Positions 3 through 27,729 of a stretch of DNA of 64,000 nucleotides are shown here, piece after piece. The stretch comes from Jaminaea rosea (taxonomy: Eukaryota > Basidiomycota > Exobasidiomycetes > Microstromatales). The stretch's first letter is position 1; the number at the start of each line of letters is the position of its first letter. The notes beneath the pieces were generated by a model, which did not search any database, was not told the origin of the DNA, and saw nothing but the letters and a program-made list of their open reading frames with translations. The stretch lies in the NCBI RefSeq assembly GCF_003144245.1, contig NW_020289978.1, forward strand, positions 1,052,371 to 1,116,370. The letters are read 5' to 3'. The position numbers and the translations under genes were made by a program.

Positions 3-2461
3 GAGTCGGAGGCGGTCGAGCAGCGCAGCGAGGCCCTCGCATCGATGGACGAAGAGGCGTCAGAGGATGCAGACGCCTTCTCGTCTAGGCATGACGCCGA
101 GGATAGCATGAGCCACTTGAGCATCGATGAAGATGCCGATCGTACGCCCAGGAGGCCATCGAGAGATCACAACAATGCTGCGGCTGCCGGTGGTGGGCAG
201 GCGTCGAACGACACGGGCATGTCGCAGTCGTACTATGCGCGCACTGGAAGGGGAGTGCCACTCACCATGTCTGCCATCGAGGCGCAGGACGCTGCCATGT
301 CTCCTCCAACGGCTGCTCATGCGCATCACCAGCATGCGCCGCCGCACAATGTTGGTGGCTTGCTCTCCAGCTCGCTACTCCTGGGCGGAGACGCCTACTT
401 GCCACCACCTGGAGCAGACATGCGTACAGAGGAAGAGGCAATTGCAGATGGCGATGGCGCAGAATGGGAGGACAACGACCCTACACCGATGCCAGGCCGA
501 TTGCTGCAAGACTCATGGCTCACACGACCTTCCTTGACGAGGCAACAGCTCGACAATGACCAAGAACAGGGCCAATCAGGCCTAGCAGCGCACTCGGAGC
601 GTTCTCCCCTCCTCGCGGGTGGGCCTCGCTCCCCCTCGGACACGAAGCATCACGCAGCCAATCGTCGATCCAGCTCAGCCGGCTACCAGTCGATCATATC
701 CGCCGACCCGCATCTGCATCGCGGTGGAGGTCCGCACGCCCTCGGCCACCCTTCGAGCAGCGCCTGGTCCAACATCGGCCACTTGGCTTCCCCTCACCCG
801 CCCCACGCAGAGGACATAGACGAGATCGCCCATGAGTCCACGGAGCATGTTCGCCGTCGCGAGCTGGGCGTCATGACCATGTACTCTCTTCCGGTCTGGG
901 GCACCCACCTCCTCGAGCTCTCCCTCAATGTCGTGTCCGTCTTCTCCATTGGTCACCTGGGCACTATTCAGCTCGCCGCGGCATCCCTCTCCTCAATGAC
1001 GGCAAACGTCACAGCCTTCTCCCTCCTCTCCGGCTACATCTCTGCATTGGACTCCCTCCTCCCGCCCGCCTTCACGCAACAGCCTAAGCGCGTAGGCGTC
1101 TACTCGCAGAGCATGGCGATCATTGTCGCATTCCTCTGCCTGCCCATTGCCGTCATGTGGCTCTACGCCGAAAAGCTCCTGCTCGCTCTGGGTCAGGAGG
1201 CGGAGGTAGCGCGCCTCAGTGGCGTGTACCTGCGTGTTATGCTGCCTGGCGTGCCCGCCTACGCTGGCTTCGAGGTGTGCAGGCGCTATCTACAAGCGCA
1301 AGGGTTGATGAGCGCATCCACCGTCGTGCTGCTCTTCGTTTCGCCGCTTAACGCCTTGATGAACTACCTGCTTGTGTGGGGCCCGGAGAGTATCAGACTC
1401 GGCTTCGTGGGAGCACCGCTGGCGAGTGCCATTTCCAACTGTGAGTGGGCGCGCGTCCTGACTCCTCGTCTTGTCCTCTGCTGACCATTCCTGCCTCCCC
1501 ACCCTTATTCATGCTCCTCGCGCGCGCAGGGCTCATGTTCTTCCTCGCACTCGGACAATGCTACATCGCCCCTCGCACAGCCTGGGGCGGCTGGTCCCTC
1601 TCCTCCGCGGCCAAACCAGCAAATATCCTTCCCTGCCTCTCCCTCGGCTTCTACGGCTTCCTGGCCATCTCTTCCGAATGGTGGGCATGGGAGATTTCCT
1701 CCCTCATCACCTCCCTCCTCGGCACCACCCCGCTCGCAGCACAGAGTGTCCTCCTGGTGTGCTCGAGCATCTTCTACCAACAGCCGTTCGCCATCTCCGT
1801 CGCCGCGGCCGTGCGAGTAGGAAACTTGCTCGGGGCACGCAAGCCGCGAGACGCACAAATTAGCAGCTATGCGGGCGTGGGGCTCAGCCTTGCCTGTGGT
1901 GTGGTCAACAGCTCGCTCATCATGATCTTCCGCGATCCGATTGCCCGACTCTTCTCTACCGACCAGGTGGTCATCGATCTGCTCCTCAAGACACTCCCGC
2001 TCCTCGCCCTCTTCCAGGTGACCGACGGCGTAGCCGGCGTGACGGGCGGCATCCTCCGCGGTACGGGTCGCCAGCATCTCGGCGCCTACCTGAACGTGGT
2101 AGCTTACTACGTCATTGCTCTCCCGCTGGGTACGTGGCTCACCTTCCAGGGCAAGTACGGTCTGCCGGGCATGTGGATGGGCCTCACCGTGGCCCTGACC
2201 ATCTCCTCTGCGGGAGGCATGTGGCTTGTCTACCGCACCGACTGGGATGCCGAGGTGGCAAAGGTGCAGGCCAGGATGACCGAAGATTTCCCCGGTGGTG
2301 GTGCAGGGCACGCTCCTTCTGCTGCTGCGGCGACTACCACGGCCGTCTCGGAGCAGGACGGTCCACCCCTCGTGGCCAATGGAGCACGACAGCGCAAGCA
2401 GCAGACCGCGGGGCCGGGGAGATCGGAGCGACCCTCCTTCTCTTCTGCGAATAATGTCTAG
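3..2461 (+). CDS. MATE family multidrug/toxin extrusion transporter, 5' end possibly outside the window
   Basis: Exons 3-1440 and 1530-2461; the 89-nt intron has a GTGAGT donor and a GCAG acceptor and restores an Asn-Trp-Leu-Met stretch typical of MATE helices. The first ATG in the window is at 45, but the frame is open back to base 3, so the true start may lie upstream. From that ATG roughly 270 residues are acidic, His/Ser/Pro-rich and probably cytosolic. About 12 hydrophobic segments follow, beginning with the conserved ELGVMTMYSLPVWGTHLLEL region, in two MATE halves. The last ~65 residues are a polar tail. MATE proteins exchange cations (H+ or Na+) for drugs or metabolites at the plasma or vacuolar membrane; the substrate here cannot be read from sequence. 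The long N-terminal extension resembles fungal ERC1-type members. Confidence 0.9.
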
Positions 2462-2775
2462 ACGCGCGTGGTCATGCGCGCTCTCACTCAGTCATCCAAA
2501 GCAATGCTCTAAACGCTCATGCGCAACTTGTAATGCTCTTCGCCAATCACTCACTCCTTATCTCGCAGGCACTAGAGGGCAGGCTCATCGCCATCGAAAA
2601 GTATTATTCATCATCCTCGCTCCTCAATCAGTCAATTGCCGCGAACCCGTACCCGGAACCGTGCCCGTACCCACGTCGCCGATGCTCCGGCTTTCTCACG
2701 CTGCTGTGAAGCCTTCTCGTCTAGCTTATCTCCATCTTCAAATCATCATGCCTTCCTCGCTCCTCTGACGACAGT
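2462..2775. other. Intergenic between two plus-strand genes
   Basis: Three hundred and fourteen bases holding the 3' end of the MATE gene and the promoter/leader of the FMN oxidase. I see T/C-rich runs just before the downstream ATG and no gene. Confidence 0.6.
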
Positions 2776-4069
2776 ATGAATAGATCTCCAAGCTACGACG
2801 GCCTCGTCTTCACCATCTCGGACCTGGCGAGAGAGGGCAGCGCCAAGATGTCGCTTATGGCGAGGGACTACCTCAACGGCGGGTCGATGGATGAACAGAC
2901 GTCAGTCACGCTCAATCGACACACATCTGTAGCTTGTCGTCTCCAGCACTGAACTGCACACCACCTCCCTCCTCCACAGCTCCGGCGACAACTGCTCCGC
3001 GTACGCTCGATATCGTCTTCGCCCTCGCGTCATGGTGGACGTGACTTGCATCGACCTCAGCACTCTCTGCCTGAGTAGTCGCGTCTCCTTTCCCTGCGGA
3101 ATCGCCCCAGCTGCAGGGCATGGCTTGGCCCACCCTGACGCCGAAGAGGGAACGGGCCGCGCTGCTGCGGGCAAAGAGGTGGCGATGTGCCTCTCGACGT
3201 GGAGTAATTCTAGCCTCGAGGCAGTAGCTGCCTCTACGGCGGGGAGAGTACCACTGGCACAGCAGCTAAGCTTGGTCAAGGATGAGGACACCAATCTTCA
3301 GCTCATTCGCCGGGCCGAGGCGGCGGGGTATCGCGCCCTTTTCGTTACGGTGGACTGTGTGTATCTGGGCAAGCGGGTCAATGAGCAACGCAATGGGTTC
3401 AGCTATCCTGGTCATCTCAAGTGGGGGAACCTGCCTCATTTCAATCCGGCCGGGTCCCTCGAGACGGCTGTGGGGTGGATGGAGTATGAGACCAAGGGAG
3501 GATGGGAGACGGTCAGGTGGTTGAAGGGGGTGACGAGTATGGAGGTCTGGCTCAAGGTGGGGCCAGGCGAGAGGCTCGTACTGTGCTGAAGATTACCAGA
3601 GTCGCTCACGACTTGCTCACCCACGCGCACGCAGGGCATCCTCACCCCCGAGGATGCGGAACTCGCCGTCGAGGCAGGTGCAGACGGACTCATCGTCAGC
3701 AACCACGGAGGACGCCAGCTTGATGGGGTACCCGCCACTATCGACTGTCTCGCAGCCATCGTAGACGCGGTAGCTGGCCGGATTCCCGTCCACCTAGACG
3801 GCGGTATCAGGCGCGGCAGTGACATGTTCAAGGCTCTCGCTCTCGGCGCTCAGCACGTCTGGATCGGTCGACCCGCGGTCTGGGGCCTCGCATACAAGGG
3901 TGAGGAAGGGGTGAGGCTGGCGCTCAATCTGTTGGAAGAGGAGTTCAGGATCGTCATGGCGCTGATGGGCTGTCGTCGGGTAGGCGAGATAAAGAGGGAG
4001 CACCTGGCTTTGATGGGCAGCGATGGAATGTACAGGACGCTTGAGAGCACAGGAAAAGCGAAAATGTAG
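2776..4069 (+). CDS. FMN-dependent alpha-hydroxyacid oxidase/dehydrogenase (glycolate/lactate oxidase family)
   Basis: Three exons, 2776-2900, 2980-3556 and 3635-4069 (introns of 79 and 78 nt), encode 378 residues, the usual family length. The family oxidises 2-hydroxyacids to 2-oxoacids with FMN in a TIM barrel. Visible hallmarks are the N-terminal RDYLNGG substrate tyrosine region, RLRPRVMVDV, TVDCVYLGKR with the active-site Asp, WLKGI with Lys234 for FMN, and SNHGGRQLDG with base His258 and Arg261. The FMN phosphate site near LDGGIRRG is present. One expected residue is absent: the QLY motif that carries the second catalytic Tyr (Tyr129 in spinach glycolate oxidase) reads QLS, with Ser139. 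The 3' end converges with the aldolase gene, only 26 bases between stop codons. Substrate (glycolate, lactate, mandelate or other) is not determinable. Confidence 0.9.
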
Positions 4070-4095
4070 CAACCAGCGCTGGCGTGTACGCACGT

Positions 4096-4989
4096 CTACT
4101 TTTTGACACGAGCAACCACACCCTTGAGACGCGCAACATCGTCGCCTGACAAGGGCAGAGTAGGGGCGCGTACAGGACCCATGGGCAGGCCCAGCACATC
4201 GAGCGCAGCCTTGACTCCCGCAGGGTAGTTGACCGACTCGAGGCACGCGGCAATAGGATATAGGAGTGACCAGATCTCCTTTGCCTGTTTGAGGTCCTGC
4301 TCCTCGACCAGAGCCTGATAAAGAGCTACTGACTCGTACGGCGCAACGGACGCGACACCCCATGCGACGCCCTCTGCGCCCATGGCCAGAGCGGCAAAGG
4401 TAAAGGTGTCCGTGCCGTTGAAGTGGGCCATCCTCTGCCCAGCAGCAGTGTTGCATACATGGTCGATGGCGTGGGGAGCATTGCCCGACGTGTCCTTGAT
4501 GTAGCGCATTCGCGGTATCTTGGCCAACTCTCGCATCTGGTCGGCGGTGAGGGGGAGCCCCGTAGCCGAGGGGACGTGGTAGTAGACAATATCCAAGCTA
4601 CCGCACGCCGTCGAGACGGCACATAGAAAGAATTGCAGCGCTTCGAAGGAGAGACGCTCGTAGAAGGGCGGCACGACCATGATGGCATCAATGCCCCGCG
4701 TCTGAGCGCACCATTGCGCCATCTCCTCCGCAGCGCGCGTGTTGAGCGCACCGAAGCCCGCGACGACATTCAAGGGGCGATCGCCTACCGCAGCCACATA
4801 GGCTCTTATGACGGCCTTGTGCTCTTCGGGTGTAAGGGAGGTGAACTCGCCCGTGGTGCCCGTTACCACGACACCGGTGCAATTGGCGTCGGCTAGACGA
4901 TCCACGAGGGGCTGGATTTTCGACAGGTCGAGGGAAAGGCCATCAGCGCTGAAGGGCGTGGGGACGGCGGCGAGGACTCCGCGGAACAT
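4096..4989 (-). CDS. Dihydrodipicolinate synthase/N-acetylneuraminate lyase family aldolase
   Basis: Intronless, 297 residues from the ATG at 4989. An upstream in-frame TTG at 5034 is the only alternative and was not used. The fold is a class I aldolase TIM barrel forming a Schiff base between Lys and a pyruvate-type keto acid. Visible motifs are GTTGE (44-48, binds the keto-acid carboxylate), YYHVPSATG with the catalytic Tyr about 137, and YIKDTSG with Schiff-base Lys165. In fungi this superfamily rarely makes lysine precursors, because fungi use the aminoadipate route. More likely roles are cleavage of 2-keto-3-deoxy sugar acids or 4-hydroxy-2-oxoglutarate. It is tail-to-tail with the FMN hydroxyacid oxidase, which suggests but does not prove a shared keto-acid/glyoxylate role. 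Confidence 0.88.
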   Translation of the reverse strand: MFRGVLAAVPTPFSADGLSLDLSKIQPLVDRLADANCTGVVVTGTTGEFTSLTPEEHKAVIRAYVAAVGDRPLNVVAGFGALNTRAAEEMAQWCAQTRGIDAIMVVPPFYERLSFEALQFFLCAVSTACGSLDIVYYHVPSATGLPLTADQMRELAKIPRMRYIKDTSGNAPHAIDHVCNTAAGQRMAHFNGTDTFTFAALAMGAEGVAWGVASVAPYESVALYQALVEEQDLKQAKEIWSLLYPIAACLESVNYPAGVKAALDVLGLPMGPVRAPTLPLSGDDVARLKGVVARVKK

Positions 4990-6109
4990 GCTGAGCGGTG
5001 GTGTGGTGGTGGTGGCGGGGGCGAGAGGAGTCAAGGTCGGTAGTCGCCCTCTGCTGTCATTGTGCTACATGGTGAGGTAGTTGCTGCTATCGCGGCTCGC
5101 GGTTGCTTACCAATATCCGGCCGCTATCTTTCGCGCAGCGCAGGCGGCACTTCGCTCATTTGACGCCCTGACCCCCGCGAGCACGTATCGCGCTCGAGGA
5201 CGATGCCCTTGCCCCCATCATACGCAAATGACATCAAGATTGGGACGAAAGATTGGGACGATTTCACTCCCAATGGTACCAGGCTAAGGCCTTTGGCAGG
5301 CTATCTACGAACGAGGCTTGACCTTCGGAAGTAGCCACGTGTTCTTCCCCGCCCGCCGTTGAGAATAGCACCCACTTTGCTCCTGCCTCTTTCTCGCTCC
5401 CGCTCGCGAAGCGACGATTCCAGCTCAGCATCTCACAGGCGAGCCAAGGGAACATCTCGCATGGTGAGATCATGAGGTCCAGACTCTTGAAAAGAGCCGG
5501 ACCTCCTCTTGTTACACGGGCAAGTCCGCCACACAATGGAGTCACAGCTATGGTAAGGCTCCGGCCAAACGTTGCGTCTCGGGCACTTGCGGCTACCCCA
5601 CAATGACCGTGGCTTGTTTCGATGGGCTCGCGTTCGAGAAGTCGACGAAGCCCCCTGCAGTGCATTGATCCCGGCCAAACGCCGTGGAAGGCGGGGCAGC
5701 CGAAGACCAGCGCAAGAGGAGCGCAAGAGGAGCAGCGCAGGAGGAGCTCTAGAGCACCACTTTACGTCCCGGACGCTCGGACCTCTCTCGCCAAGGGGTG
5801 TCGAGCGCCGCGGTGCTCAAGCGTGCTGGCATCTCGATCAGGTCGGGCGGAGCAGCTATTGCGAGTTTTCTGGACCACAGCGGGACGCTTCTTGCATCTC
5901 ATCTCCCCTCAATCGGGGCCTGGACCTAGATGTGGGTCCGAGCGGCGCGTCGCAACACCTGTTGTTCCATCGAGGATGAGAAGGAGATCAACGATGCTGC
6001 ACGAGCAGGTGGGCTTGACAAGGTGCTACATAAGGAGACATGATCGCCGCAAAGGCTTGTGGCCTCATCACCTCCACCCCTCCCTCTCCCTCCTCCCTCC
6101 CCCTCTGCG
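4990..6109. promoter_or_regulatory. Divergent intergenic region; promoter of the first secreted repeat protein
   Basis: About 1.1 kb between the aldolase start (minus) and the secreted protein start (plus). The last ~230 bases resemble the region upstream of the tandem paralogue. A block at 5879-5960 contains CGGGACG, TGGGTCCGAGCG and TCGCAACACCT; a TATA-like CTACATAAGG lies at 6026-6035, about 75 bases before the ATG. CT-rich leader precedes the ATG. The rest has only short open frames without protein-like composition; I see no gene. Confidence 0.55.
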
Positions 6110-9100
6110 ATGCGCTTCGCGACGCTCTTCACCTTCACCCTTCTCGCCCTATCGACGGCTCAGGCTCTTCCCAGCCTCCCACTTCGCGGCAACAATCGAG
6201 ACAATGGTGTCAGCTGCAAGCGTGCAACTCAATGCAAGTCACAGTACTGCCACAATGGCAAGTGCGATGTGAGAAAGGCCCTAGGGCGCAAGTGCTCCGC
6301 AGATGACGACTGCCAGAGCGGGTACTGCTGTGAGTATCAGTGCGATGCGACATGTGAATATGTTGGGGCTAAAACGCATCTTCCATCGCGTAGACAAGGG
6401 CAAGTGCGACAAGAAGAAGAAAAAGACGACAGGAAGCCAGCCACTTCCCCAGCCGAAGCCTCAACCGCAGCCGAAGCCGCAACCGCACCCGAAGCCAGCG
6501 CCTCTTCAGCCTCGACCTCGTCCAGTACCCGCGCCTCTGCCACCTTTCCATGGATCAAACCCTGCTCCAGTCAAGCCTCCACCTGCTCAGGGCAATGATC
6601 CGGCGAAGCCCAACGTTCCTGCCCAGCCAGAGAAACAACCTCCAACAAGCCCTTCGTAGCCTGGCGCCGTTCAACCACAGGCTCCCCCTCAGTCCGATAC
6701 GCCACAGTCGCCAGCTCAACCAGACCGCGCTCCTGCTCAGCCAGCGTTGCCACCCACTCAACCAGACACTCCGTCCACTGTGCCAAACACGCCTTCTGCC
6801 GGGCCGCAGCAGGAGACGTCCATCCAGCCGGAGACTCCAGCTCAGCCCGCAACGCCTACTCAACACGAGTCAGAGACTGCTGCTCAGCCAGAGGTTCCCG
6901 CAAAGCCTGCTCAGCCCGCTCAGCCTGCTCAAGGAGAGGCGCCCGCTCAGCCTGCTCAACCACCTGCTCAAGGAGAGACGCCCGCTCAGCCTGCTCAAGG
7001 AGAGACGCCCGCTCAGCCTGCTCAAGGAGAGACGCCCGCTCAGCCCGCTCATCCACCTGCTCAAGGAGAGACGCCCGCTCAGCCTGCTCAAGGAGAGACG
7101 CCCGCTCAGCCTGCTCAANNNNNNNNNNGACGCCCGCTCAGCCTGCTCAAGGAGAGACGCCCGCTCAGCCCGCTCAACCGCCTGCTCAAGGAGAGACGCC
7201 CGCTCAGCCTGCTCAAGGAGAGACGCCCGCTCAACCGCCTGCTCAAGGAGAGACGCCCGCTCAGCCTGCTCAAGGAGAGACGCCCGCTCAGCCTGCTCAA
7301 CCAGAAGAACCCACTCAGCCGAAAATGCCTGCAGCTCAGCCGGACATTCAGCCAGAGATGCCTGACCTTCTTAACCATCAGCCAGAGACGCCTGCTCAGG
7401 CGCAGTCAGAGGCCCCCCCTGCTCAACCAGAGACAGATGCACCGTCTAGTCAGCCAGGAAAGCCCGCTCAGTCGCAGCCAGAGGAGTCCGTTGAGCCAGA
7501 GACAGAGACTCCCGCTCAGCCGCAACCGGAGACAGAGACGCCTGCTGAGCAGCCGCAGCCAGAAGAGTCTGCCCAGACAGAGACAGAGACTCCTACTCAA
7601 CCATTGACAGGAGAGCCCATCCAGTCAGAGACAGAGACGCCTGCACAGCCGCAACAGGAGACTCCCATTCAATCCCAGCCAAAGTCACCCACCCCTCAGC
7701 TAGAGACTCCGTCAACTCAATCAGAACTGCCAGCACAGCCGCAGCCAGAGACGCCGCCTGCTCAACCGGAGAGACCACCTACTCAACCAGAAGAGCCCAC
7801 GCAAGCAGATTCTTCTGACATTCAGCCAGAGACGACTACTCAGCCGCAGCCAGAGGTTCCAGATCAGTCGCAATCTGAGACGCCTGCGCAGCAAGAGGCG
7901 CCGGCTCAGCCAGACGCTCCCGCTCAACCAGAAGACTCTGCCCAGCCAGAAATGCCTGCTGATCCGGAAGCGCCTGCTCAACCGCAGCCGCAGCCGCAGA
8001 GCCCAGCTCAGCCAGATACGCTGCCACCTCAACCAGACGAGCCAGCTGAGCCAGAGGCTCCAGCTCTGCCCGAGGCTCCAGCTCTGCCCGAGGCGTCTTC
8101 TGCTCAAGCGCAGCCCAAGACGCCTGCTGCTCAGCAAGAGATGCCTGCTCAGCCGCAGTCAGAGACGCCTCCAGCTCAAGTAGAGTCGCCTCCTGCTCAG
8201 ACGCTGCCAAAGTCTCCCGCTCAGGCGGAGACGCCTGCTCAGCCAGAGACGCCTGTCCAGTCGCAACTGGACGTTCCGGCTCAGCCCGACACGCCTGACG
8301 CTCAACTGGAGACGCCACCGACTCAACCCAAAGAGCCCGCGCAGTCAGAGACGCCTGCAGCTCAGCCGCAGGCCGAAATACCTGCTCAGCCAGAGACGTC
8401 CGCTCAGTCAGAGACTCCCTCTCAGCCGCCGCCCGATACGCCTGCTCAATCGCAGTCGGAGACTCCAGCTCAGCAAGAGACGCCTGCTCAAGCGGAACCA
8501 CAGAAGCCCGCTCAGCCGCAGACAGAGACTCCTGACGCTCAGCCTGAGCCTGATATGCCTACTGAGGCGGAGGTAGAGACGCCTGCACCTCAGCCTGAAA
8601 AGCCTGCTCAGGCAGGGGCGCCCGCTCAGCCAGAGTCAAAGACGCCTACTGAGACGCAATCAGAGCCAGTGACGTCATCTCCTCAGCCAGCGGCACCTGC
8701 TGAGCTAGAGCCGCAGATGCCCGCCGAGCCAGAGACGCCAGAGGCTCCTTCTCAGCCAAAGATACCTGACGCTCAGTCAGAGATTCCTGACGCTCAGTCA
8801 GAGACGTCTACTGAGCCGAAGACGCAGACACCTGCTCAGCCGCAGGCAGAGACGCCTGCACCTCAGCCGCAGCTCGGGTCGCCCACTCAGCCGGACACAC
8901 AAACGCCAGCTCAGCCAGAGATGCAGACATCCGCACAATCAGAGACGCCTACTCAGCCAGCAACGTCTACTGAGCCGCAGCCGGAGACCGCACAATACAA
9001 AGCGCCCGCACAGCCGGAGATGCAAACGCCAGCTCAGCCTGAGACTCCCAATCAAGCAGCGACATCTGACGCTCAGCTAGAGACGTCTACTGAGCCACTG

Positions 9101-9883
9101 CCGGAGAAGACTACGGAGGCGCAGACAGCGACATCTGACGCTCAGCTAGAGACGTCCACTGAGCCGCTGCCGGAGAAGACTACGGAGGCGCAGACAGCGA
9201 CATCTGACGCTCAGCTAGAGACGTCTACTGAGCCACTGCCGGAGACGTCTTCTGGGCCTGACGCAACGCCTGCTCAACCAATAACGACATCTACCCAGCC
9301 ACAAGAGCCTGCGCAAGCTGAAGCGCCTCAGCCGAAGGATACCATCCAGCAGCCTGTCTCTCTTCAGCCCAACCAGCCCGTCCAGCCGAACGTCGCTGCA
9401 CAACCAGACTCGACTGATGAAGAGACGGTTAAGTCCAATCCATCTCAGTCTACGCCTTCGACGGACGAACCCTCTCATGAGTCACTTGAGCCAGCTTCAT
9501 CTTCTTCCTCCTCGACAGGCGGCGACACTACGTCAGGCGATCTAACTCAGTCTGGAACGCCAGCTATAACCCAGCCCAGTCAAGCAGGTGATCCCGAGAC
9601 AGGCAGCGATGCTACGGCCGTCACTTCATCGGCAGATGGCGATGCCGCGCAAGCAGATGTTTCAGCTCAGCCTGACGTGCCGACCGAAAGCGCTGGCTCA
9701 AGTCTAGAAGGCGATCTCGCTCCTTCAGGTTCTTCAGCAGCAGAGACTTCTACCGAGAACGCAGCTGAAGCTCACGAGCAGGAAGGCGCCACGACTCAGT
9801 CCCAGGCAGCCGGGGAAAAGAAGGCAACTGAGGAGAAGCAGGTAGTTACTTTCGATGAGCAAAACTCTCAAGAAGACGAATAG
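6110..9883 (+). CDS. Large secreted cysteine-module and Pro/Gln/Glu/Thr-repeat protein (tandem paralogue 1)
   Basis: Exon 1 is 6110-6329; the intron 6330-6393 (64 nt, GTGAGT...TAG) is at the same place as in the paralogue at 10689. Residues 1-19 (MRFATLFTFTLLALSTAQA) form a signal peptide. Two C-x5-C-x4-C-x4-C units follow, the second spanning the intron. Then come a short Lys-rich patch, a Pro/Gln/Lys segment and more than 1,000 residues of PAQPET-type repeats, ending in an acidic tail (NSQEDE). Two problems affect the model. An in-frame TAG at 6657-6659 interrupts a frame otherwise open from 6396 to the gap. The 10-N gap at 7119-7128 lies inside a 27-nt repeat and leaves the flanking frames inconsistent. 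Composition suggests a heavily O-glycosylated cell-surface or secreted effector-like protein. Function is unknown; expression as one polypeptide is unproven. Confidence 0.7.
6657..6659 (+). other. In-frame TAG inside the repeat-protein gene
   Basis: After residues reading PPTSPS, a TAG falls in the same frame as the signal-peptide exon. The frame continues afterwards as PGAVQPQAPPQ with the same composition. It could be a sequence error, a true truncation to about 160 residues, readthrough, or part of a weak intron such as 6615-6680 (GTTCCT...CACAG, 66 nt, frame preserved). Confidence 0.75.
6931..7304 (+). repeat. 27-nt tandem coding repeat (GETPAQPAQ unit)
   Basis: Near-perfect copies of a 27-base unit encoding nine residues, G-E-T-P-A-Q-P-A-Q, with occasional insertions of a Pro-Pro or His-Pro variant. 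The array holds the assembly gap, so copy number is unknown and likely polymorphic between strains. Degenerate versions of the same Pro-Ala-Gln theme continue to about 9300. Confidence 0.9.
7119..7128. other. Assembly gap of 10 N within the repeat array
   Basis: The bases before the gap read in the frame of codons starting at multiples of three, those after in the frame of 7130. Restoring the repeat would need five missing bases, or five plus a multiple of 27, rather than ten, so the N run is a placeholder of unknown true length. Confidence 0.95.
9061..9245 (+). repeat. 69-nt direct repeat, about 2.7 copies, coding
   Basis: Units at 9061-9129, 9130-9198 and a partial unit from 9199 are almost identical. 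Each encodes 23 residues that start ATSDAQLETSTEP and end EKTTEAQT. Low divergence points to recent duplication within the repeat protein gene. Confidence 0.9.
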
Positions 9884-10688
9884 GCAGTTGTCTGATCTTG
9901 ACTGCGGGAGGTTGGGAATCTGGTCGAGGACGAGAATGCCCGAAGCACGGGACCCACCCAGCTCGCCTTCCACGGAAATGATGTCTCCACGCGCGCACTG
10001 ATCGGAGGAGCCTCTTTTGTCACCGTTGCGTGGCCTTTCTCTGATACGTTTCCGTCATTGTTCTTTCTATCAGCTTGTTAAAGTTGATCCATCATCCATC
10101 TGGGATAGCCGTCACCTGTGTCTCTCTATTTGGTCACACTCATACAGAAGCAACGCGACTTGATGCTTAGATCTGAAATCTGTGTGAGCGAGCGGGCGAC
10201 ACAATGAGGGAGGTCAAGATTGGTCCTCTTTTGCCTTGCTGCTGACCTGCCCTTGTGCTGCAGTTGTTCAACGGCCAAGACTTCCATCGAGGAATCCCGC
10301 TCGAGCGGGATCGCCTCCTTACTGCCCCTGATCAGAGGACGCTAAAGAGAGCGGGGCAAGGTGGCGCAAAGCCCGATCTAAGGCAGGTAGACGCTCGACG
10401 CTCGGGCCCTCGGTTGCAAAGGGAATTGTGGGGCCTGGATCTCGCGGGAGCTCAGCCAGAGCGGGCTGAGCTGCTCTTTGCAACTTTTTGTACGGTTCAT
10501 TCAACGCGGGACGTTCGTTGCACTCAGATGCGGGCCCGAGCGTCGCCTTGTCGCAACACCTTGAGTATTGATGAGGACGTGGGATGAGGACGAGAAAGGG
10601 TGGGTCTCGTGGGGGCGATACATAAGTGGAATGGCGGACGTCCTCTTCCTCGGGCATTGTTGTCTCGTCACCAGAATCATCTTCGAAG
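9884..10688. promoter_or_regulatory. Intergenic between the two secreted paralogues; promoter of the second
   Basis: The first part is the 3' region of the upstream gene. The block 10506-10561 contains GCGGGACG, GCGGGCCCGAGCG and TCGCAACACCT in the same order as upstream of the first paralogue. A TATA-like GATACATAAG lies at 10618-10627, about 62 bases before the ATG. No additional gene seen. Confidence 0.6.
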
Positions 10689-13600
10689 ATGCGCTTCGCG
10701 ACCCTCTTCACAGTCACCATCCTAGCCCTCTCCTCCGTGCAGGCTCTTCCCAGCCTTGAGCCACGCCATCAGCGAGGCAACGGTATCAGCTGCAAGCGTG
10801 CGACGCAATGCAAGTCGCAGTATTGCAATAACGGGAAGTGCGACACCAAGAAGCCTCTTGGCTACAAGTGCTCCGTCCATGATGGCTGTCAGAGCGGCTG
10901 CTGCAGTGAGTCACTGTAAGGTGCGGTATTGACGCGATCGAGGCTGACATCATTGCCCATCGCGCAGACAAGGGCAAGTGCGACCAAAAGGCCAAGAAGG
11001 CAAGCCACCCTCACCCAGCACCAAAGAAGACCAACCCGCAGTCGAAGCCTCATCCGAAGCCAAAGCCCAAGGCACCGCACCCCCACCCTCACCCGCACCC
11101 GTACCCCAGACCACAGCCGGATCGGCCTCATCCTCAGCCCCAGCCTCAGCCCCAGCCTCAGCCCCAGCCTCCTCAAAATCCTGAGCAGCCTCAGCCCAAC
11201 CCTCCGACTGTACCAGGGCCCACGCCCGAGCAGCCGCAACCAGGGCCAGCACCCGATCAGCCGCAGCCACAGCCGCAGCCCGGTACCACTGTACCCACAA
11301 TAGAGTACACCGGCGCCTTCTCGTTCTTGAAGGCAGACGGCCAACCAGGTGACCTTCTTGGCCTGTCGTTCGGCCAGAAGCGATCTGAACGCCCAGCCGA
11401 TGTCACCATCGTGGGTCGGGAGGAGCTTTGGACGCTCAAAGCTGACGGCACTTTGATGTCGCCCGCGGGTCATCTGCTCTACGGCGACGGAACCGTGGTC
11501 AAGGCTTACCCAATCGCCGGCGCCAGGCCAGACAAGCTCAGTCTGTACACGTGTACGCTCGACAAGAGCTTGATGGCAAGCGCATACGTGCTTGACTGCA
11601 GTGTGCCAGACAAGGCGAACGGAGGACGCTCAAGCTCCTTTGTCATCTGCTCCGGCGCAGGCGAAGTCCAAGCGAGGGCTGAAGGCTGCAAGAGCGGTGT
11701 TGCCACGCGCTTCGATCATCTGATCCTCGACGGTCATCAAAGGGAGGCTTCTCCCAGTCCACAAGATCCAGTCGTGCACGATCAACCTACCACTCAACCG
11801 AGCGATCCGGTCACGCAGCCTCAACCAAACGATCCTGTCACACAGCCCAGCACCCCTGCTCAGCCGCAAGACCCCGCTCAGCCCAATCCTGTCACTCAGC
11901 CCAGCACCCCTGCTCAGCCGCAAGACCCCGCTCAGCCCAATGACCCTGGACAAACGACTGACCCTCCAGCCCAGCCTAACGATCCCGCCGCGCCCACGCC
12001 CAATCAGCCCATCAGTGGCGTCTTCTCGTACATCGCCACTTCGGGCATGTCTGCGCAATTCTTGGGCGACAAAGCGATTGCGCTACGAGACGACTTGCTA
12101 TCGTCCGAAGTCAGCGTCAAGACTTCACCCCGCACCTGGACTATGACGTCGGAGGGTTCTCTCGTGTCGAACTTCGGAGCAGTACTCAGCGGCGATGGCG
12201 TCCGCGTTCGGACTGTTCTCGAGGGTGCTACTGTCGAAAACTACCGCCCATACAAGTGCACAGTAGACGACAGCACCACGGAAGATACTACGGTACTCAA
12301 CTGCGAGGTCAAGAGTCCCAGCGGGATGTTCACGTGGAACAGTTTCGTGGTCTGCGAGGACGGTCGTGTAGAAGGCAGCAGCATGCCATGCGACGGCGAG
12401 GTTAAGGCCTACTTCACCCACTTTACCCTAGGAGCGCAGATGACGACGAGCCCGCAGCCAGATACGACCATTCCCGGGACAACACAGCCCGGCACCTCCC
12501 AGCCGGAGACGCCCGCTCAGCCTGAAACGCCTGTTCAGCCAGGAACGCCCGCTCAGCCGCAACCGGAGACACCCACTCAGCCTGAAGTTCCTGCTCAGCC
12601 ACAGACGCCAGCACAACCGGAGACGCCCGCCCAATCATACATTCCTGGCTTTATCCATTACAGCGGCGTCTTCTCTTACCTTAACTCGGAGGGCAAACCA
12701 GGCGACTATTTGGGCGATACCGTCATCCACCGCCGCGATCTCGCTGCTCGTGCTGCTGGAGCCGACGTCACGGTTCGGCGGCAAGCACAGACGTGGACGG
12801 TGGACCAGAATGGTTATTTGACGTCGTCCTCGGGTGGTCGACTGTTTGGCGACGGCGAGCGAATCAAGACGTACAGTGCAAACGCACCTACCAGCTTTTC
12901 TCCATACGAGTGCTTCGCCGATACCGCAAGCTCGACCGAGGACACTACGGTGCTCAATTGCGAGGCACAACTGAAGTCAGGGCAGCGCAAGGCCAACTCA
13001 TTCGTCATCTGTACAGACGGACGTGTGGAAGGCAGCGACTCGGCCTGCCTCGATGGAGATGCCACCCATCCCTCGTTCACCCAGTTCATCTTGGGCGGCG
13101 AGAGGAGTACGCCAGTCGACGAAGCGAAGAAAGACGAGGAGACGAAAGAGGAAGCCGAGGAGAAGGCGAAAGCTGCCGAGGAGGAGGCCAAGAAGCAGGC
13201 GGAAGCTGAGGAGGCCAAGAAGCAGGCGGAAGCTGAGGAGGCCAAGAAGCAGGCGGAAGCTGAGGAGGCCAAGAAGCAAGCCGACGAAGAGGCCGAGAAG
13301 CAGGCTGAGGCTGAGGCCGCGGCTGCGGAGGTCAAGAAGGCGACAGAGGCTGAGGAGGCCAAGAAGCAAGCCGAGGCTGAGGCTGCGGAGGCCAAGAAGC
13401 AAGCCGAAGAAGAGGAGGCCAAGCAGGCGGATATTGAGCAGGCCAAGCAGGCTGCAGAAGCTGAGCGGGCCAAGAAGCAAGCCGAGGAAGAGGCTGAGGA
13501 AGCGAAGAAGGCGGCAGATATCGAGGAGGCCAAGAAGAAGGCAGAGGAGGACAAGCCCAAGAAGCCACTGTCGTCTGGCATCTTGTCGTGGCCGGGCTCA

Positions 13601-14011
13601 TCCAGGTTCCTCTTCGAGGAGACCAGTCCCCGCGGCCCCGAGTCCGCCGGCATACCCTTCTACGAGCGCGCGCTCCGGACAGACGGTCGAAGCGGGGAGG
13701 TCTGGGCTATCAATGATTCTGGCAACCTCATCTCTCCAACCGGCAAGCTACTGATCACGGACGGCAGGTTCGTCGGCACGCTCGATGGAGATCGCCTCGC
13801 AACGGCGAGCGGACGGTCAGCGTACGTCTGCTCACGAGACGAGAGTTCTACCCCTCAGCAAGCTGTCCTCAATTGCGAGGCTCAGGTGACGACGGGTATT
13901 GAGAACGAATTTGCAACCTGCTTCTCACCGTTCGTGCAGACACCCTCTTCGCCCTGCACGTGGCGCAGAATGATCTTCTCGCAACTCAGTCTTACTGCTG
14001 TGGAAGATTAA
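10689..14011 (+). CDS. Large secreted protein with cysteine module and four repeated four-Cys domains (tandem paralogue 2)
   Basis: Exons 10689-10905 and 10968-14011 (62-nt intron, GTGAGT...GCAG) give 1,086 residues. Residues 1-19 (MRFATLFTVTILALSSVQA) are a signal peptide. Two C-x5-C-x4-C-x4-C units follow, with one extra Cys in the second. Then comes a Lys/His-Pro/Gln-Pro linker. A roughly 140-residue domain occurs four times, at about 186-330, 422-563, 637-784 and 942-1086. Each begins near SGVFSY or equivalent, has a WT..DG.L.S..G..L.GDG core and four cysteines spaced about 14-15, 14-16 and 11-12 residues apart. Linkers between domains are Pro/Gln/Thr-rich; residues about 790-939 form a Lys/Glu/Ala coiled coil. 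I do not recognise the domain. It resembles a cell-wall or secreted adhesin/effector in layout; that is inference. It is a tandem paralogue of the gene at 6110, sharing N-terminus, intron and promoter blocks. Confidence 0.85.
11834..11941 (+). repeat. 54-nt direct repeat, two copies, coding
   Basis: Two adjacent copies of an 18-residue linker unit (PVTQPSTPAQPQDPAQPN) differ by one base in the part compared. They lie between the first and second four-Cys domains. Confidence 0.85.
13195..13560 (+). repeat. Lys/Glu/Ala coiled-coil repeat, coding
   Basis: A run of imperfect 9-residue units of the form AEEAKKQAE (27 bases), three of them nearly identical at 13204-13284, then degenerate copies. 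It encodes a strongly charged helical rod of about 120 residues between domains three and four of the secreted protein. Confidence 0.85.
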
Positions 14012-14331: not shown

Positions 14332-16073
14332 ATGACCAAGATCGAAATCAACGCACCCAACGGCACCAAGCTTAGCCTTCCTGATGGCCTCTTCATCGGC
14401 GGAGAGTGGAAGACGCCCAGAGGCGGCGAGCAGAGCCGTATCCCCGTCGTGTACCCCGCGACAGGCGAGAAGATCTGCGACGTCGCTGTCGGGTCGAGCG
14501 CAGATGTCGACGATGCCGTGCAAGCTGCTGAGGCTGCCTTGGCAAAGGACTGGGGACTAAAGAGTACGCCTGCTAAGCGTGGCGAATTGATGAGCAAGGT
14601 GAGTAGCGATACGCCTCGACAAAGCATATAGCCTGCTCTTGCTGAGCCCTACCCTCCCTCTCGCTCGCACGCCGGCGCAGTGGGCCGACCTCATCGAAAA
14701 GAATGCTAAGGAACTCTCGATACTCGAAGCTATCGATAATGGCAAGCCGCGCTGGATGGCCGAGCAGATCGACCTAGCAGACTCTGTTGCATGCTTGCGC
14801 TTCTATGCCGGCCTGGCTGACAAGGTCGAGGGCAAGACGATGGAGCTCGATGTGACTACCAAGTTTGCTCACACGCGCGTTGAGCCTATTGGCGTGTGTG
14901 GGGCGATCATTCCGTGGAACTACCCGGTTCAGGTGAGCCGCGCTAGAGACGAGGATGAGCACGCCGTATGCTGACCACCTCGACCGCCCTCACAGATGGC
15001 ATGCTGGAAGCTGGGCCCTGCTCTCGCGGCAGGCAACTGCCTTATCCTCAAGCCCGCCGAGCAGACTCCTCTCTCTGCCCTGCGCTTGGCCGAGCTGGCT
15101 CAAGAGGCCGGCTACCCCGCTGGGGCTCTGCAAGTCATCAATGGCCTGGGCAGCGAGGTCGGCGCGGCGATTGCGAGCCACAAGCGTATTCGCAAAGTCG
15201 CCTTCACTGGGTCTACGGTGACTGGGCGCAAGATTATGGCTATGGCTGCGTCGAGCAACCTCAAGAAGGTGCGCACGACGAGCGGGCGTGATCGAAATGT
15301 ATTATGCTGACATCTCTGCGTGCCAGGTCACGCTCGAGCTCGGGGGCAAGTCCCCCGTCCTCGTCTTCGACGACGTCGACGTCGAATTTGCCGTACCCTG
15401 GGTGGCCATGGCCATCCTCTTCAACATGGGCCAAGACTGCTGCGCAGGCTCGCGCCTCTACATCCAGCGCGGCGTTCACGATGCCTTCGTGGCTAAGCTT
15501 ACTGAAGCATTCAAGGCTGTCAAGATCGGCGATCCCTTCGACGACACTACGTCGCACGGCGCGCAGGTGAGCGAAGAGCAATACCGCAAGATCCTCGCCT
15601 ACATCGCCCACGGCAAGGACGAGGGAGCTACGCTCGTCTGCGGAGGCGCCGACTCCAGCTCCATCCAGGGAGTGCCCAAGAGCGGCTACTGGGTGGAACC
15701 CACGATCTTCACGCACGCGCGCAAAGGTATGCGAATCGTAGACGAGGAAATTTTCGGTCCCGTGCTCGCTGTGATCCCATTTGATACAGAGGAGGAGGCC
15801 ATCGCTATGGCAAATGACAGCGAATATGGATTAGGCGCTGGCGTCTTCTCCGAGAATGGGGCTCGCTGCCTGCGCGTGTCGAGCGCAATTCAGGCAGGTA
15901 CGGTCTTTATCAACAACTATGCCCTGCTTTCGAACGCCGTACCTTTTGGCGGGTACAAGCAGAGCGGGCATGGGAGGGAGCTGGGCGTTGATGCTGTCAA
16001 GGAGTGGACGGAGGTCAAGGCCGTGCATTGGAATATTGGAGAGAAGCTCGAGTGGCCGCTGAGAGCGGCGTGA
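14332..16073 (+). CDS. NAD(P)-dependent aldehyde dehydrogenase
   Basis: Four exons, 14332-14598, 14681-14932, 14996-15268 and 15327-16073 (introns 82, 63 and 58 nt), encode 512 residues, normal for class 1/2 ALDH. It oxidises aldehydes to acids with NAD(P)+. Visible motifs are IPWNYP at the nucleotide fold, LKPAEQTPLSAL, FTGSTVTG, LELGGKSP with general base Glu268, and GQDCCAGSR with catalytic Cys302. The C-terminal PFGGYKQSGHGRELG region is intact. No targeting signal is obvious, so a cytosolic enzyme is likely. The family spans acetaldehyde, betaine aldehyde and other substrates; specificity is not readable. Confidence 0.95.
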
Positions 16074-17799: not shown

Positions 17800-20700
17800 A
17801 TGGCTAGCTGTTCATACTCGCGCGCGTCGTCATCACGGCGGCGCAGCAAGTCAAAGCGCCCCTCGAAGCTGGCCCTCTTCTGCGCATCCCTCGCAGCACT
17901 CGCCGGCGCAGCAGAGTCGCAATTCACAGCCACCGTCTCCAAGGATGCCGCCAGCGTCTCGACGCTTTCCAACGTCCTCTCACCGTCGTTCATCGGCATG
18001 GGGTTCGAGCCGTCAAATCTCGCAGCATTCGTCGGGGCTAGGCAGACCAATCAGCTCACCATGCAGCTCCTCAACAATTTGGCCAACTATACAGGTCAGC
18101 CCCCTCATTTGCGAGTCGGGGGCAATACGGGCGACACGGCTGTGTACGACCCGAATCACAAGTCGCCCTACTTTGATCCGAATCCTGGCATGACGGGAGT
18201 CACAGACGCCCTCATCTTCGGGCCTGCCTACTTTCAGCAGATTGTGAGTGCGCGTGCGTGATGTATGCGCGGATATGATCATCGCTGACTTTCTTGCCCT
18301 GGTACTCGCGCCCCCCGCAGAACTCGTTCCCCAAGGGTACGCCCATCACATTCTCTGTCCCCATGGCATACAATGGCTCAGACGCCGTGCAGCAATCCGT
18401 CGAGATCGCCCAAGCCGCCATGGACGCCTTTACCAACGTCAAGCTGTACAACCTCGAAGTAGGCAATGAGCCCGACCTCTACATCACCAACAACTTCCGG
18501 CCTTCTTCGTGGACCGCCTACGATGCTGGCAACGAGTGGATCGCCCACGTCAAGGCCATCTGGGAGAATGTCCTCAAGCCAAAGGGCATCTCTCAGGCCT
18601 TCTTCGAGGCTGCCTGCACGGCCACGACTGCAGCCAACCCTAGCTACCGAATTGACAACCTCGTCAAGACGGGCGTAGCGACAGACAATGGCGTGTGGCT
18701 GAGCGGGTGGAACCAGCACGACTACTACTACTACGTCAACGTCTCGAGCTACCAGCTCACCTTGGAGCGCCTCATGGACATCCAGTCGACGGCTGGTCAG
18801 TTCAAGGAGTGGAGGCAGCAGATTGCTCAGGCCAGAGTCACGGGCAAACCCTACTACCTGCGAGAGATGGGCGCGGTGGGGCCTGCGGGTATCAAGGGCA
18901 TCACCGACACCTTTGGCGGTGCTCTTTGGACGCTAAACTTTTTCCTCTATGCTGCGTCCATCGGCGTCGACTCGATTCAGCTGCACGCGCTGCAGGACTC
19001 GTACACATCGCCGTGGCAGCCAATCCCGGACGCAGACGGCAATGGTCCCTTCATCCGACCATCGTACTACGCCTTTGCTGCGATGGCACAGATCAATGGC
19101 GCAGGATGCCAGACGCAGGTCGGCTCCATCGATCTGAGCAACGCTCCTTCGGGCTACGATCGCAACGTCGCAGCATACGGCGTCTACAATGCGGGGAACA
19201 TCCAGTCCATTGTCATTATGAACAACAAACCGGCATACTCCGGCAGCGGTATCCCCACGCAGCAGGTCACCTTGACCATGCCCGACCTCGCTGGCAAGAC
19301 CTTCTACCTCTCCACGCTCACGGCGGCCGGGGCGGAGGTGACTTCGAACGTCACCTGGAACGGCATCAGCTACGAACAATCTGGGAGCGGCCAGCCATCG
19401 GTAGTCAGCCGCGCAAAGCAGTCCATTCAAGTTGGAGCAGACGGCACCTTGACGATCCCCGTCCGCGACACTTCAGCCGTCGTAGCCAACCTCGACGAAG
19501 TGCTGGGCACGACGAACAACGTCGTTGACACAAAGGCGTGCACCAAGCAGGCCAACACGGTCCCTTCCAAGTCGAAGCCCAGCGGCTTCAAGTCCACGTC
19601 TGGCTTCGCTAAATTCATGGCCCTCCCCAAGGCGGCCATCATCGGCATCGCAGCTGGGGGGGGAGTCTTCATCCTCGCCCTACTCGGCCTCAGCATCTTC
19701 TGCTGCGTGCGCTGCTGCAAACGAAGACGCCAGCGCAAGTCTCTGTCAGAGAAGATGGACAACGCCTATGGAAGTGGGTTGGTGCGCCGTCCAGCCGGCG
19801 GTTCCATCTCCGCAGGTCCAAAGACGACGCTGGGTGGATACTACAAGTCTGTCGGGCCTGACGGAAGCGAGACGCCCGACGATGTCAGCCTGCTGCCCAT
19901 GCGTGGCAAGGACAAGGGCTTCGGTGACTCATCGACTGCGCTGAACAGTGGGGCTAATACGCCTTATGGTGCGCGTCCCTACTACAACAACAGCAATGCC
20001 AGCTTGGCAGGCACGCCGCTCCTCAACGCGCAGTCGCCTCGCTGGCCGGACTCGCCCTCGATGGGCTCCTTCAACCAGCATCTGGCCGCGAGCCCTGGAG
20101 ACTACGCGTATAGCCCCTCGCCCCAGCAATGGGGCGGAGCAGCAGCAGCGACGGCAGGGATGACAGCAATGATGCCGCACGGTAGCTCTCGTCTGAGCAA
20201 CGATGCCTCGCGTCAGCCGCGCTCGCGTACGACAAGCAACAATGCGCAGGGGCAGGCGCACGCGACTGCGCAGTACTCGATGCCGCCAAATGGTCAAGGG
20301 CGGGCACGTCGAAACAGCTGGCAAGACGGGGGCAGGCCGCACGGCGGATCGTCGTCAAGGAGTAATTCGCGCGACCCGCCTCGTGCGCCCAAGGCTGCTT
20401 CTAGCCAAGGACACGGCTACCGTACACCATCGCAGGACACGAGGAACGCGCCGCCCGTGCCCGTCGTACCGCAGAACTACCGTAATAGCGCGGGAAGCTC
20501 GACGTCCGGGCACCAAGAGCAGCAGCAGCCGAGATCACCGCAGCGTCTTCCGCCTCAACAGCAGCAGCAACAGCAGCAACAGCATTACCAGCATTACCGC
20601 GAGCAGCAGCAGCAATATCAGAGGTCACCGCAGCGCCAACCGCAGCCGCACCAGCAAGGCCGCGCAGTAGCCCCTGAGCAGCAGTCGAGTCGCTCTGATG

Positions 20701-21086
20701 CTGACTTAGATCGGCAAGTGACGGCCGCTACGAGCTCGCAGCACCATCGTCAGCAGCCCACCGCTTCGGCTTCTGCCACGTCGACGCGCGAGCTGCAGAG
20801 ACAGGCGGCAGCGCAGCGTCAACCAGCGGCGCGCGAGTCGAATCAGTACTCGATGCCCAGCTCGCTCGCTTACCTGAATGAGGGTGCGCAAAGCACCGTC
20901 GGCGGCGGTGGCGGCGGCGCGTACCACGGCGGGCACCGGCAGCAGCAGCAGCAGCAGCAGCAGTACCAGCAGCAGTACCAGCAACAATACCAACAGCAGC
21001 AGCAGCAATACGACCCGCTCGGCTTCCAGTACGAGTACAGCGACAACCGTTTCGATGGCGGCAACTACAGCAGGCAATATCGCTAG
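17800..21086 (+). CDS. Membrane-anchored GH79-like glycoside hydrolase with polyglutamine cytosolic tail
   Basis: Exons 17800-18243 and 18321-21086 (77-nt intron, GTGAGT...GCAG) give 1,069 residues. A basic N-terminus precedes a hydrophobic signal sequence at about 24-40. The ectodomain (about 42-545) resembles fungal family 79 beta-glucuronidase-like hydrolases. EVGNEPDLY holds predicted acid/base Glu198, and YLREMGAVG holds predicted nucleophile Glu330; a beta-type C-terminal subdomain follows. A single transmembrane segment lies at about 586-610, followed by a Cys/Lys/Arg-rich stop-transfer stretch. The last ~440 residues are Ser/Pro/Asn/Gln-rich with several Gln runs encoded mostly by CAG, predicted cytosolic. 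The family cleaves uronic acid residues from glycans such as proteoglycans; the target here is unknown. The long intracellular tail is unusual for a hydrolase. Confidence 0.85.
20517..21009 (+). repeat. CAG-rich polyglutamine tracts, coding
   Basis: Several Gln runs are encoded here, notably around 20557-20630 and 20938-21008, by CAG with some CAA interruptions. They lie in the predicted cytosolic tail of the GH79-like protein and should be length-variable. Confidence 0.9.
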
Positions 21087-27087: not shown

Positions 27088-27729
27088 GGTTGCGACAGTG
27101 TGGTGAGATGGGAGATGAGGGAGAGTGAGGGAGAGAGAGAGAGGAAGTTGCCAGCTGACTGTTATCGCTGACTTTTGAGTGTGACAAACAAGCGCCGCCG
27201 CCGCTGCTGCAATGAAGAGGAGGCGGGGGGTCCTTCGGCGCCTTTTCTCGGGTTGTATCCGATGAACCTGCCTGCTAAGTGTAGGAAGTCATGCGAACCA
27301 GATTTCGATCTCGAGAGGGGGAGCAGGCGTCTGTGTGTGGGATGAACGAAGCGAATGAAAGCGCGAATAGAGAGGCGCAGGCGCAGGTGCGGAGCCTTTT
27401 CTCGAGGTGGGTTTGGCGCGCCGGGCGACCTCCGTGAGGAACACGCCGAAGCCGCCCTAGCGCCGCCCTGGCGCTGCGCTGGTCTGCGAGCGTGTCGCTT
27501 CCTTCACTCGGAGCCTTTTTCGTCTCTGCGAGCGAGGCGGTCAGACCGACAACATCGATCGGGCCAAAGCGGCGGGCAGAGGGCGGGCGGGTGTCCAGAC
27601 ACGACACGATGAGAGGAGGCGTAGAGAGATAGTTGAGCGGTGAGATCTGGTATTGAGAAGGGCCCTCCGAATCTACTCTACTCTCGATCGATGACAAGAA
27701 CAACAGAAATTGGGCGGCTCCCACGCCCC
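27088..27729. promoter_or_regulatory. Promoter of the ferric reductase, 3' side of the CTR gene
   Basis: Six hundred and forty bases between two minus-strand genes. It includes GA-rich leader sequence just upstream of the reductase ATG and one GATA-type match (TTATCG on the plus strand near 27163). A single such match is expected by chance. No gene seen. Confidence 0.45.

What the first reader, a model, noticed from the sequence alone, without database searches (positions are those of the whole stretch)
6110..14011. Tandem pair of giant secreted proteins with a common cysteine module and different C-terminal architectures
Seen: nearly identical signal peptides, two C-x5-C-x4-C-x4-C units, and an intron at the same codon position; after that, one protein is pure Pro/Gln/Glu/Thr repeat and the other has four globular domains and a coiled coil. 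Inference: tandem duplication followed by C-terminal replacement, a layout common for fungal cell-surface adhesins or effectors. I do not recognise either protein as a described family.
Basis: partly seen in the sequence, partly recalled or inferred. Interest (0 to 1): 0.8.

Follow-up and report, generated by a model that had tools for sequence, protein, structure and literature searches.

The report
Secreted fungal beta-trefoil protein family
Two neighbouring fungal genes for secreted proteins belong to a small gene family whose shared, previously unlisted domain is predicted to fold like lectins and protease inhibitors; one gene strings four such domains together, while its neighbour lacks them and looks broken in this assembly.

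Summary
Both genes share a signal peptide, two C-x5-C-x4-C-x4-C units and a phase-1 intron at the same place; gene 2 has four globular domains. Two corrections. Gene 1 meets an in-frame TAG after 161 codons (6657-6659), then a 10-N gap (7119-7128), so the 'giant' repeat protein is not one open frame here. The 'coiled coil' has no heptad signal and looks like a single charged helix. New: the four domains are copies of one ~145-aa, four-cysteine domain without a Pfam match, predicted as a beta-trefoil (pLDDT 92 and 88). The genome has six single-domain paralogues in two other tandem clusters; two carry the Cys module and its intron. One two-domain relative, absent from this assembly, is in public data. 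Promoters share GCGGGAC (7 of 8 genes) and TATA-like motifs (6 of 8), both chosen after the fact. No GPI-like tail. Best reading: gene 2 is a soluble, multivalent, lectin-like wall or matrix binder; gene 1 is a sister that lost the domains. Function is inferred, not shown.

The parts
6110..6329 (+). Gene 1 exon 1: signal peptide, LPLRG motif, Cys unit 1 and three cysteines of unit 2
6330..6393 (+). Gene 1 intron, 64 nt, GTGAGT..TAG, phase 1
6394..6659 (+). Gene 1 exon 2 to the in-frame TAG (161 aa in all)
6660..9883 (+). Pro/Gln/Glu/Thr-rich repeat frame after the TAG; not open to gene 1 as assembled
7119..7128 (.). 10-N assembly gap inside the repeat array; true length unknown
10689..10905 (+). 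Gene 2 exon 1: signal peptide, Cys unit 1 and part of unit 2
10906..10967 (+). Gene 2 intron, 62 nt, GTGAGT..CAG, phase 1, same place as in gene 1
10968..14011 (+). Gene 2 exon 2, to its stop
11309..11734 (+). Domain D1 (beta-trefoil family; not modelled itself)
12014..12436 (+). Domain D2 (not modelled itself)
12662..13099 (+). Domain D3; AlphaFold2 pLDDT 92, 12 strands
13118..13561 (+). Charged Glu/Ala/Lys helix, 148 aa (gene 2 residues 790-937)
   Evidence: window coordinates worked out from those residue numbers
13571..14008 (+). Domain D4 (most divergent copy); AlphaFold2 pLDDT 88
5880..5886 (+). GCGGGAC motif, -230 from gene 1 ATG
10506..10512 (+). GCGGGAC motif, -183 from gene 2 ATG
6028..6034 (+). 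TATA-like ACATAAG, -82 from gene 1 ATG
10620..10626 (+). TATA-like ACATAAG, -69 from gene 2 ATG

Best explanation
Both genes belong to a small family of apparently co-regulated secreted fungal proteins. The plan is: signal peptide, short segment ending in R-G, (in some) two four-cysteine units, a flexible Pro-rich stalk (His-Pro in the single-domain paralogues, mainly Pro-Gln in the window genes), then a ~145-aa beta-trefoil with four invariant cysteines. [Sequence shown; fold predicted by AlphaFold2.] Gene 2 strings four trefoils on Pro-Gln stalks and one long charged helix. It is released without a GPI anchor and most likely acts as a multivalent, lectin-like binder that coats or crosslinks glycans of its own wall or matrix, or of a neighbour. 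[Inferred from fold, tandem number and stalks; no ligand shown.] Gene 1 arose by tandem duplication, has lost the trefoils, and carries an expanded stalk repeat; as assembled it makes only a 161-aa Cys-module protein with a Pro-rich tail.
Against: No ligand-binding residues were identified. Ricin-type QxW occurs once per copy at most, in 6 of 10 copies, and no Pfam lectin model matches. Foldseek alone gave no PDB match at E<=0.001, and its top rows mix trefoils with antibody chains. D1 and D2 were not modelled. The promoter and TATA motifs were picked after looking at the same sequences; C11A has GCGGGAC only at -866; paired motifs are not enriched genome-wide. The domain tree is poorly resolved. 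No expression data.
Confidence: 0.5

Rival explanations
1. The trefoils are secreted protease inhibitors, like the mycocypins and cospins of mushrooms, aimed at proteases of competitors, feeders or a host; the tandem array gives several inhibitory loops per molecule.
Against: Inhibitors, lectins and growth factors lie close together in Z and many are tied within 1. 0 of 10 copies match any Pfam model at E<=10. No conserved inhibitory loop was identified.
Confidence: 0.2
2. The family are apoplastic effectors that act on a plant or other host, comparable in kind to the Ecp32 trefoil family or to the repetitive, non-GPI Rsp3 of Ustilago.
For: Secreted trefoils are common among fungal candidate effectors (passages). 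Rsp3 also combines signal peptide, QP-rich part, Cys-rich part and repeats without GPI and coats hyphae (section 6 and passages).
Against: The organism and its lifestyle are not identified. No expression data. The sequences of Ecp32 and Rsp3 were not compared here.
Confidence: 0.2
3. Gene 1 is simply a short gene for a 161-aa secreted Cys-module protein; everything after the TAG is an untranslated relic of a longer family member.
For: In-frame TAG with no consensus donor to splice it away. Repeat copies show little protein-level constraint (389 synonymous, 950 non-synonymous codon differences).
Against: 917 codons after the gap stay open in one frame while the other two hold 14 and 40 stops. 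180 of 1,156 codons are CAG, CAA or CGA, each one base change from a stop, so a long-dead frame would be expected to hold more stops.
Confidence: 0.4
4. The His-Pro-rich stalks make the family extracellular metal-binding proteins, with the trefoil serving as anchor.
For: HPHP or longer runs in 6 of 6 single-domain paralogues (HPHPHP or longer in 5; C11B has only HPHP) and one HPHPHPHP run in gene 2.
Against: The stalks of the window genes are mainly Pro-Gln. The domain, not the stalk, is what the paralogues conserve.
Confidence: 0.1

Closest known systems
Hydra PPOD proteins (tandem beta-trefoil cuticle lectins; PMC3531485, passages read)
   Same: Secreted, tandem trefoils, glycan coat role
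   Different: Two trefoils; agglutination inhibited by sulfated sugars was shown; no Cys units or stalks were mentioned in the passages read; sequence not compared
Ecp32 family of Dothideomycetes (PMC9493481, PMC11872807, passages read)
   Same: Secreted fungal proteins predicted as beta-trefoil, several paralogues, a conserved disulphide predicted for at least one
   Different: No tandem array, Cys module or stalk was mentioned in the passages read; sequences not compared here
Mycocypin/cospin protease inhibitors of mushrooms
   Same: Trefoil fold; among the best natural structural matches
   Different: Single-domain solved chains of 146-168 residues, 8-12% identity to the models; no Pfam match for our copies
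Ricin B-type lectins
   Same: Trefoil; one Q-x-W-T-L-x3-G-x-L-x-S stretch resembles their QxW motif (motif recalled)
   Different: At most one QxW per copy, in 6 of 10 copies; no Pfam match at E<=10
Ustilago maydis Rsp3 (PMC5923269, outline, section 6 and passages read)
   Same: Signal peptide, QP-rich part, Cys-rich part, repeats, no GPI anchor
   Different: Different order of parts, no globular domain described; sequence not compared
EB / Dickkopf_N / DUF7107 cysteine modules
   Same: Cysteine spacing weakly similar
   Different: All under Pfam cut-offs

Membership tests
beta-trefoil fold | 12-strand all-beta trefoil that superposes on solved trefoils over most of the domain | tested here: met
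Ricin B-type lectin | Pfam profile match above cut-off | tested here: not met
   0 of 10 copies match any Pfam model at E<=10
Ricin B-type lectin | QxW in each of three repeats (recalled) | tested here: not met
   One aligned W invariant; QxW once in 6 of 10 copies, absent in 4
Mycocypin/cospin inhibitor | Protease inhibition through a surface loop | not testable with these tools
   Structural match only, close to lectins and growth factors in Z
Ecp32 effector family | Sequence homology to Ecp32 | not tested
   Ecp32 sequences not fetched; papers seen as passages
GPI-anchored cell-wall adhesin | C-terminal hydrophobic GPI signal | tested here: not met
   Best 19-residue hydropathy in the last 40 residues is 0.32 for gene 2 and -0.98 for the repeat frame
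Kex2-processed repeat proteins (Rep1-like) | KR/RR sites between repeats | tested here: not met
   Gene 2 has KR/RR at residues 36, 210, 661, 676, 1072 only, inside Cys unit 1, D1, D3 and D4; none in the gene 1 frame after the gap
EB / Dickkopf_N / DUF7107 module | Pfam gathering score | tested here: not met
   Best 17.1 bits against a cut-off of 24.6; other matches lower and also under cut-off
Coiled coil | Heptad hydrophobic periodicity | tested here: not met
   Power at period 3.5 is 0.37 (0.62 at 3.0); 3 large hydrophobics in 148

The most novel reading that the evidence does not exclude
An undescribed fungal family of secreted beta-trefoil proteins, driven by one regulator through GCGGGAC, in which trefoil number, stalk chemistry and Cys units are mixed freely to build a graded set of extracellular glycan crosslinkers, from single binders to a four-headed chain with a rigid helical strut, plus a headless stalk-only sister.
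Probability: 0.25. Interest if true: 0.55.

Novelty: new variant of a known kind. Interest (0 to 1): 0.4.

Why it matters
It gives a predicted fold and a family to proteins that looked like orphans, and shows how a fungus may build multivalent secreted binders by multiplying one domain on repeat stalks. Because single-, four- and zero-domain members sit in one genome and most share a promoter motif, the effect of domain number on surface binding can be tested directly. It also warns that a reading-frame break and an assembly gap lie under the 'giant' repeat gene.

Tried and rejected
Protein one search returned 31 rows of 7,990 scored candidates; each covers 14-19% of the query stretch and all carry PF19127 and PF07550. 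I took them as matches to the Pro-Gln linker without viewing the alignments, and dropped all 31 (two are named Oribacterium; the rest have no name). One search with one single-domain paralogue: 0 of 158 candidates at E<=1. Search 3: 3 rows of 7,999 scored; P0033 is identical to the end of contig-11 paralogue C and P0034 differs at 1 of 110 residues from paralogue A, so only P0032 is new. PDB sequence searches: none for D3, weak only for the profile (best E 0.18, a lectin), and two weak rows for the Cys module (E 0.2 and 0.42). Bacterial and archaeal genome contigs, with D3 alone: 38 stretches matched a pattern, none a relative. The genome-wide search for paired GCGGGAC found no excess over the reversed control (17 against 41). 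The window control outside long frames for that motif was small (2,585 bp, 0 hits). Foldseek alone was indecisive. Domain phylogeny: no starred branch; D2 with D3 at 84/95. Papers: led to Rsp3, a review of repeat effectors (PMC4617103, passages) and Llp1 (PMC11857070, passages; trefoil does not occur there). Searches gave nothing useful; searches listed no description of this architecture, which covers only those searches. The species was not identified. My first intron test used a wrong peptide, and the gene 2 start was off by one; gene 1 was settled and gene 2. In one search paralogue C was cut six residues short, so its P0033 check printed False; the 100% identity comes.
Full report
What is there. 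The window lies in an unnamed 16.6-Mb genome of 21 contigs. Short GT-AG introns and gene content indicate a fungus (inference); the species was not identified. Gene 1 starts at 6110 and gene 2 at 10689, on the same strand. Their first exons are 75% identical over 219 bases (E 4e-35), with dN 0.18 and dS 1.30, so the protein has been conserved while silent sites are near saturation. Each encodes a signal peptide (judged by eye and by the hydropathy peak near the N-terminus) and two C-x5-C-x4-C-x4-C units, and each has a phase-1 intron right after the third cysteine of unit 2. Gene 2 then runs as one frame to 14011, 1086 aa in all.

Its frame reaches a TAG at 6657-6659, after 161 codons. The introns tested that could skip the stop all need non-consensus donors. 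A gap of ten N follows at 7119-7128, with array sequence on both sides, and the frames on its two sides are out of register as printed. After the gap one frame stays open for 917 codons while the others hold 14 and 40 stops. So a long Pro/Gln/Glu/Thr frame probably existed, but this assembly cannot show that it is still translated. Repeat copies differ at 389 synonymous and 950 non-synonymous codon pairs, so constraint on exact sequence is weak.

The domains. The four globular parts of gene 2 (11309-11734, 12014-12436, 12662-13099, 13571-14008) are copies of one domain. A search of the genome with D3 alone returned all four, the most divergent at E 6e-7, plus six more in two other places: three on contig 11 and three on contig 8. 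Ten copies align with four invariant cysteines and one invariant tryptophan among twelve invariant columns. None matches Pfam at E up to 10. The domain profile finds nothing at E<=1 in six frames of 6000-10688.

The paralogues explain the layout. The contig-11 genes B and C have signal peptide, two Cys units, a His-Pro stalk and one domain; gene A there, and the three contig-8 genes, lack the Cys units. In B and C the phase-1 intron sits after the third cysteine of unit 1, in genes 1 and 2 after that of unit 2, so the intron-bearing unit is probably the homologous one and the partner unit was added or lost on different sides (inference). All eight proteins carry an R-G motif shortly after the signal peptide. 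Because module plus domain occurs outside the window pair, gene 1 more likely lost the domain than had its C-terminus replaced. Its repeat resembles the D2-D3 linker of gene 2, but low complexity makes that E-value optimistic. A different protein on contig 1 matches the Cys module weakly (E about 0.01); it has two units of the same spacing, two with a longer last gap and a PAN-like stretch just under Pfam's cut-off.

Regulation. GCGGGAC occurs 16 times in 5,899 bp upstream of the eight genes, against a mean of 1.2 and a maximum of 5 in 500 dinucleotide shuffles, and at 0.16 per kb in window 14300-64000. It is present in 7 of 8 genes; C11A has one copy only, at -866, beyond the stretch counted. 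Six of eight genes have a TATA-like box at -63 to -124, where the window background gives 0.006 per 150 bp; C8A has only a TTAAGT, which was not in the background count, and C11A none. Both motifs were chosen after seeing these sequences, so the figures overstate significance. Genome-wide, paired GCGGGAC is not enriched over the reversed control.

Range. The third protein search gave one relative that is absent from this assembly, P0032, with two domains in 288 aa, and two that match contig-11 paralogues. Searched back against the own genome, P0032 hits the same ten copies at 32-44% identity; D4 is the only copy whose best match is to its second half (E 4e-12), which hints that a multi-domain form ending in a D4-like copy exists in another organism. 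The database holds proteins predicted from public genomes and metagenomes; how well it covers fungi is not known, so rarity cannot be claimed. A pattern scan with D3 found no relative in bacterial or archaeal genomes.

How it most likely works. Shown or predicted: secretion signal, Cys units, Pro-rich stalks, trefoil heads, one long Glu/Ala/Lys helix with three large hydrophobics in 148 residues and no heptad signal, and no hydrophobic tail. Inferred: gene 2 is a soluble chain of four binding heads, held apart by stalks and a stiff helix, that binds glycans on its own wall or on surfaces around it. Hydra PPODs, with two tandem trefoils, agglutinate cells and are secreted into the animal's cuticle (passages). 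Rsp3 of Ustilago shows that a repetitive secreted protein without GPI anchor can coat hyphae (section 6 and passages). Secreted trefoils are widespread among candidate effectors of plant-associated fungi (passages), so an effector or inhibitor role stays open.

Novelty. The fold is known and secreted fungal trefoils are known; a four-trefoil chain with a Cys module and His-Pro or Pro-Gln stalks was not listed by the paper searches. I rate it a new variant of a known kind.

Noticed in passing
L021:1431-2438 (contig 1): Another putative secreted protein with four Cys units (two of the same spacing, two with a longer last gap) and a PAN-like stretch (20.5 bits, cut-off 21.1); it was not among the trefoil-domain hits.
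   Followed up: partly
L019 and L020: Six single-domain paralogues in two tandem clusters, all with His-Pro stalks.
   Followed up: yes
L019:1992-2804: Public protein P0034 matches paralogue C11A with 1 of 110 residues changed, so a second strain or allele may exist in public reads.
   Followed up: partly
window 49497-59438 +: 3,314-aa frame with DUF908, DUF913, UBA and UBM matches (a TOM1/HUWE1-type ubiquitin ligase by recall); ordinary.
   Followed up: partly
window 18279-21083 +: 935-aa frame with the C-terminal beta domain of glycosyl hydrolase family 79 and a GCA repeat near its end.
   Followed up: no
window 25171-27288 -: Ferric reductase-type protein.
   Followed up: no
window 3-5064 and 14334-16070: Neighbours of the pair look metabolic or transport-related: MatE, FMN-dependent dehydrogenase, DHDPS-family lyase, aldehyde dehydrogenase; no sign of a functional cluster with the secreted genes.
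   Followed up: partly
window 41857-43594 -: Armadillo-repeat protein in two exon-like frames (Vac8-like by recall).
   Followed up: no
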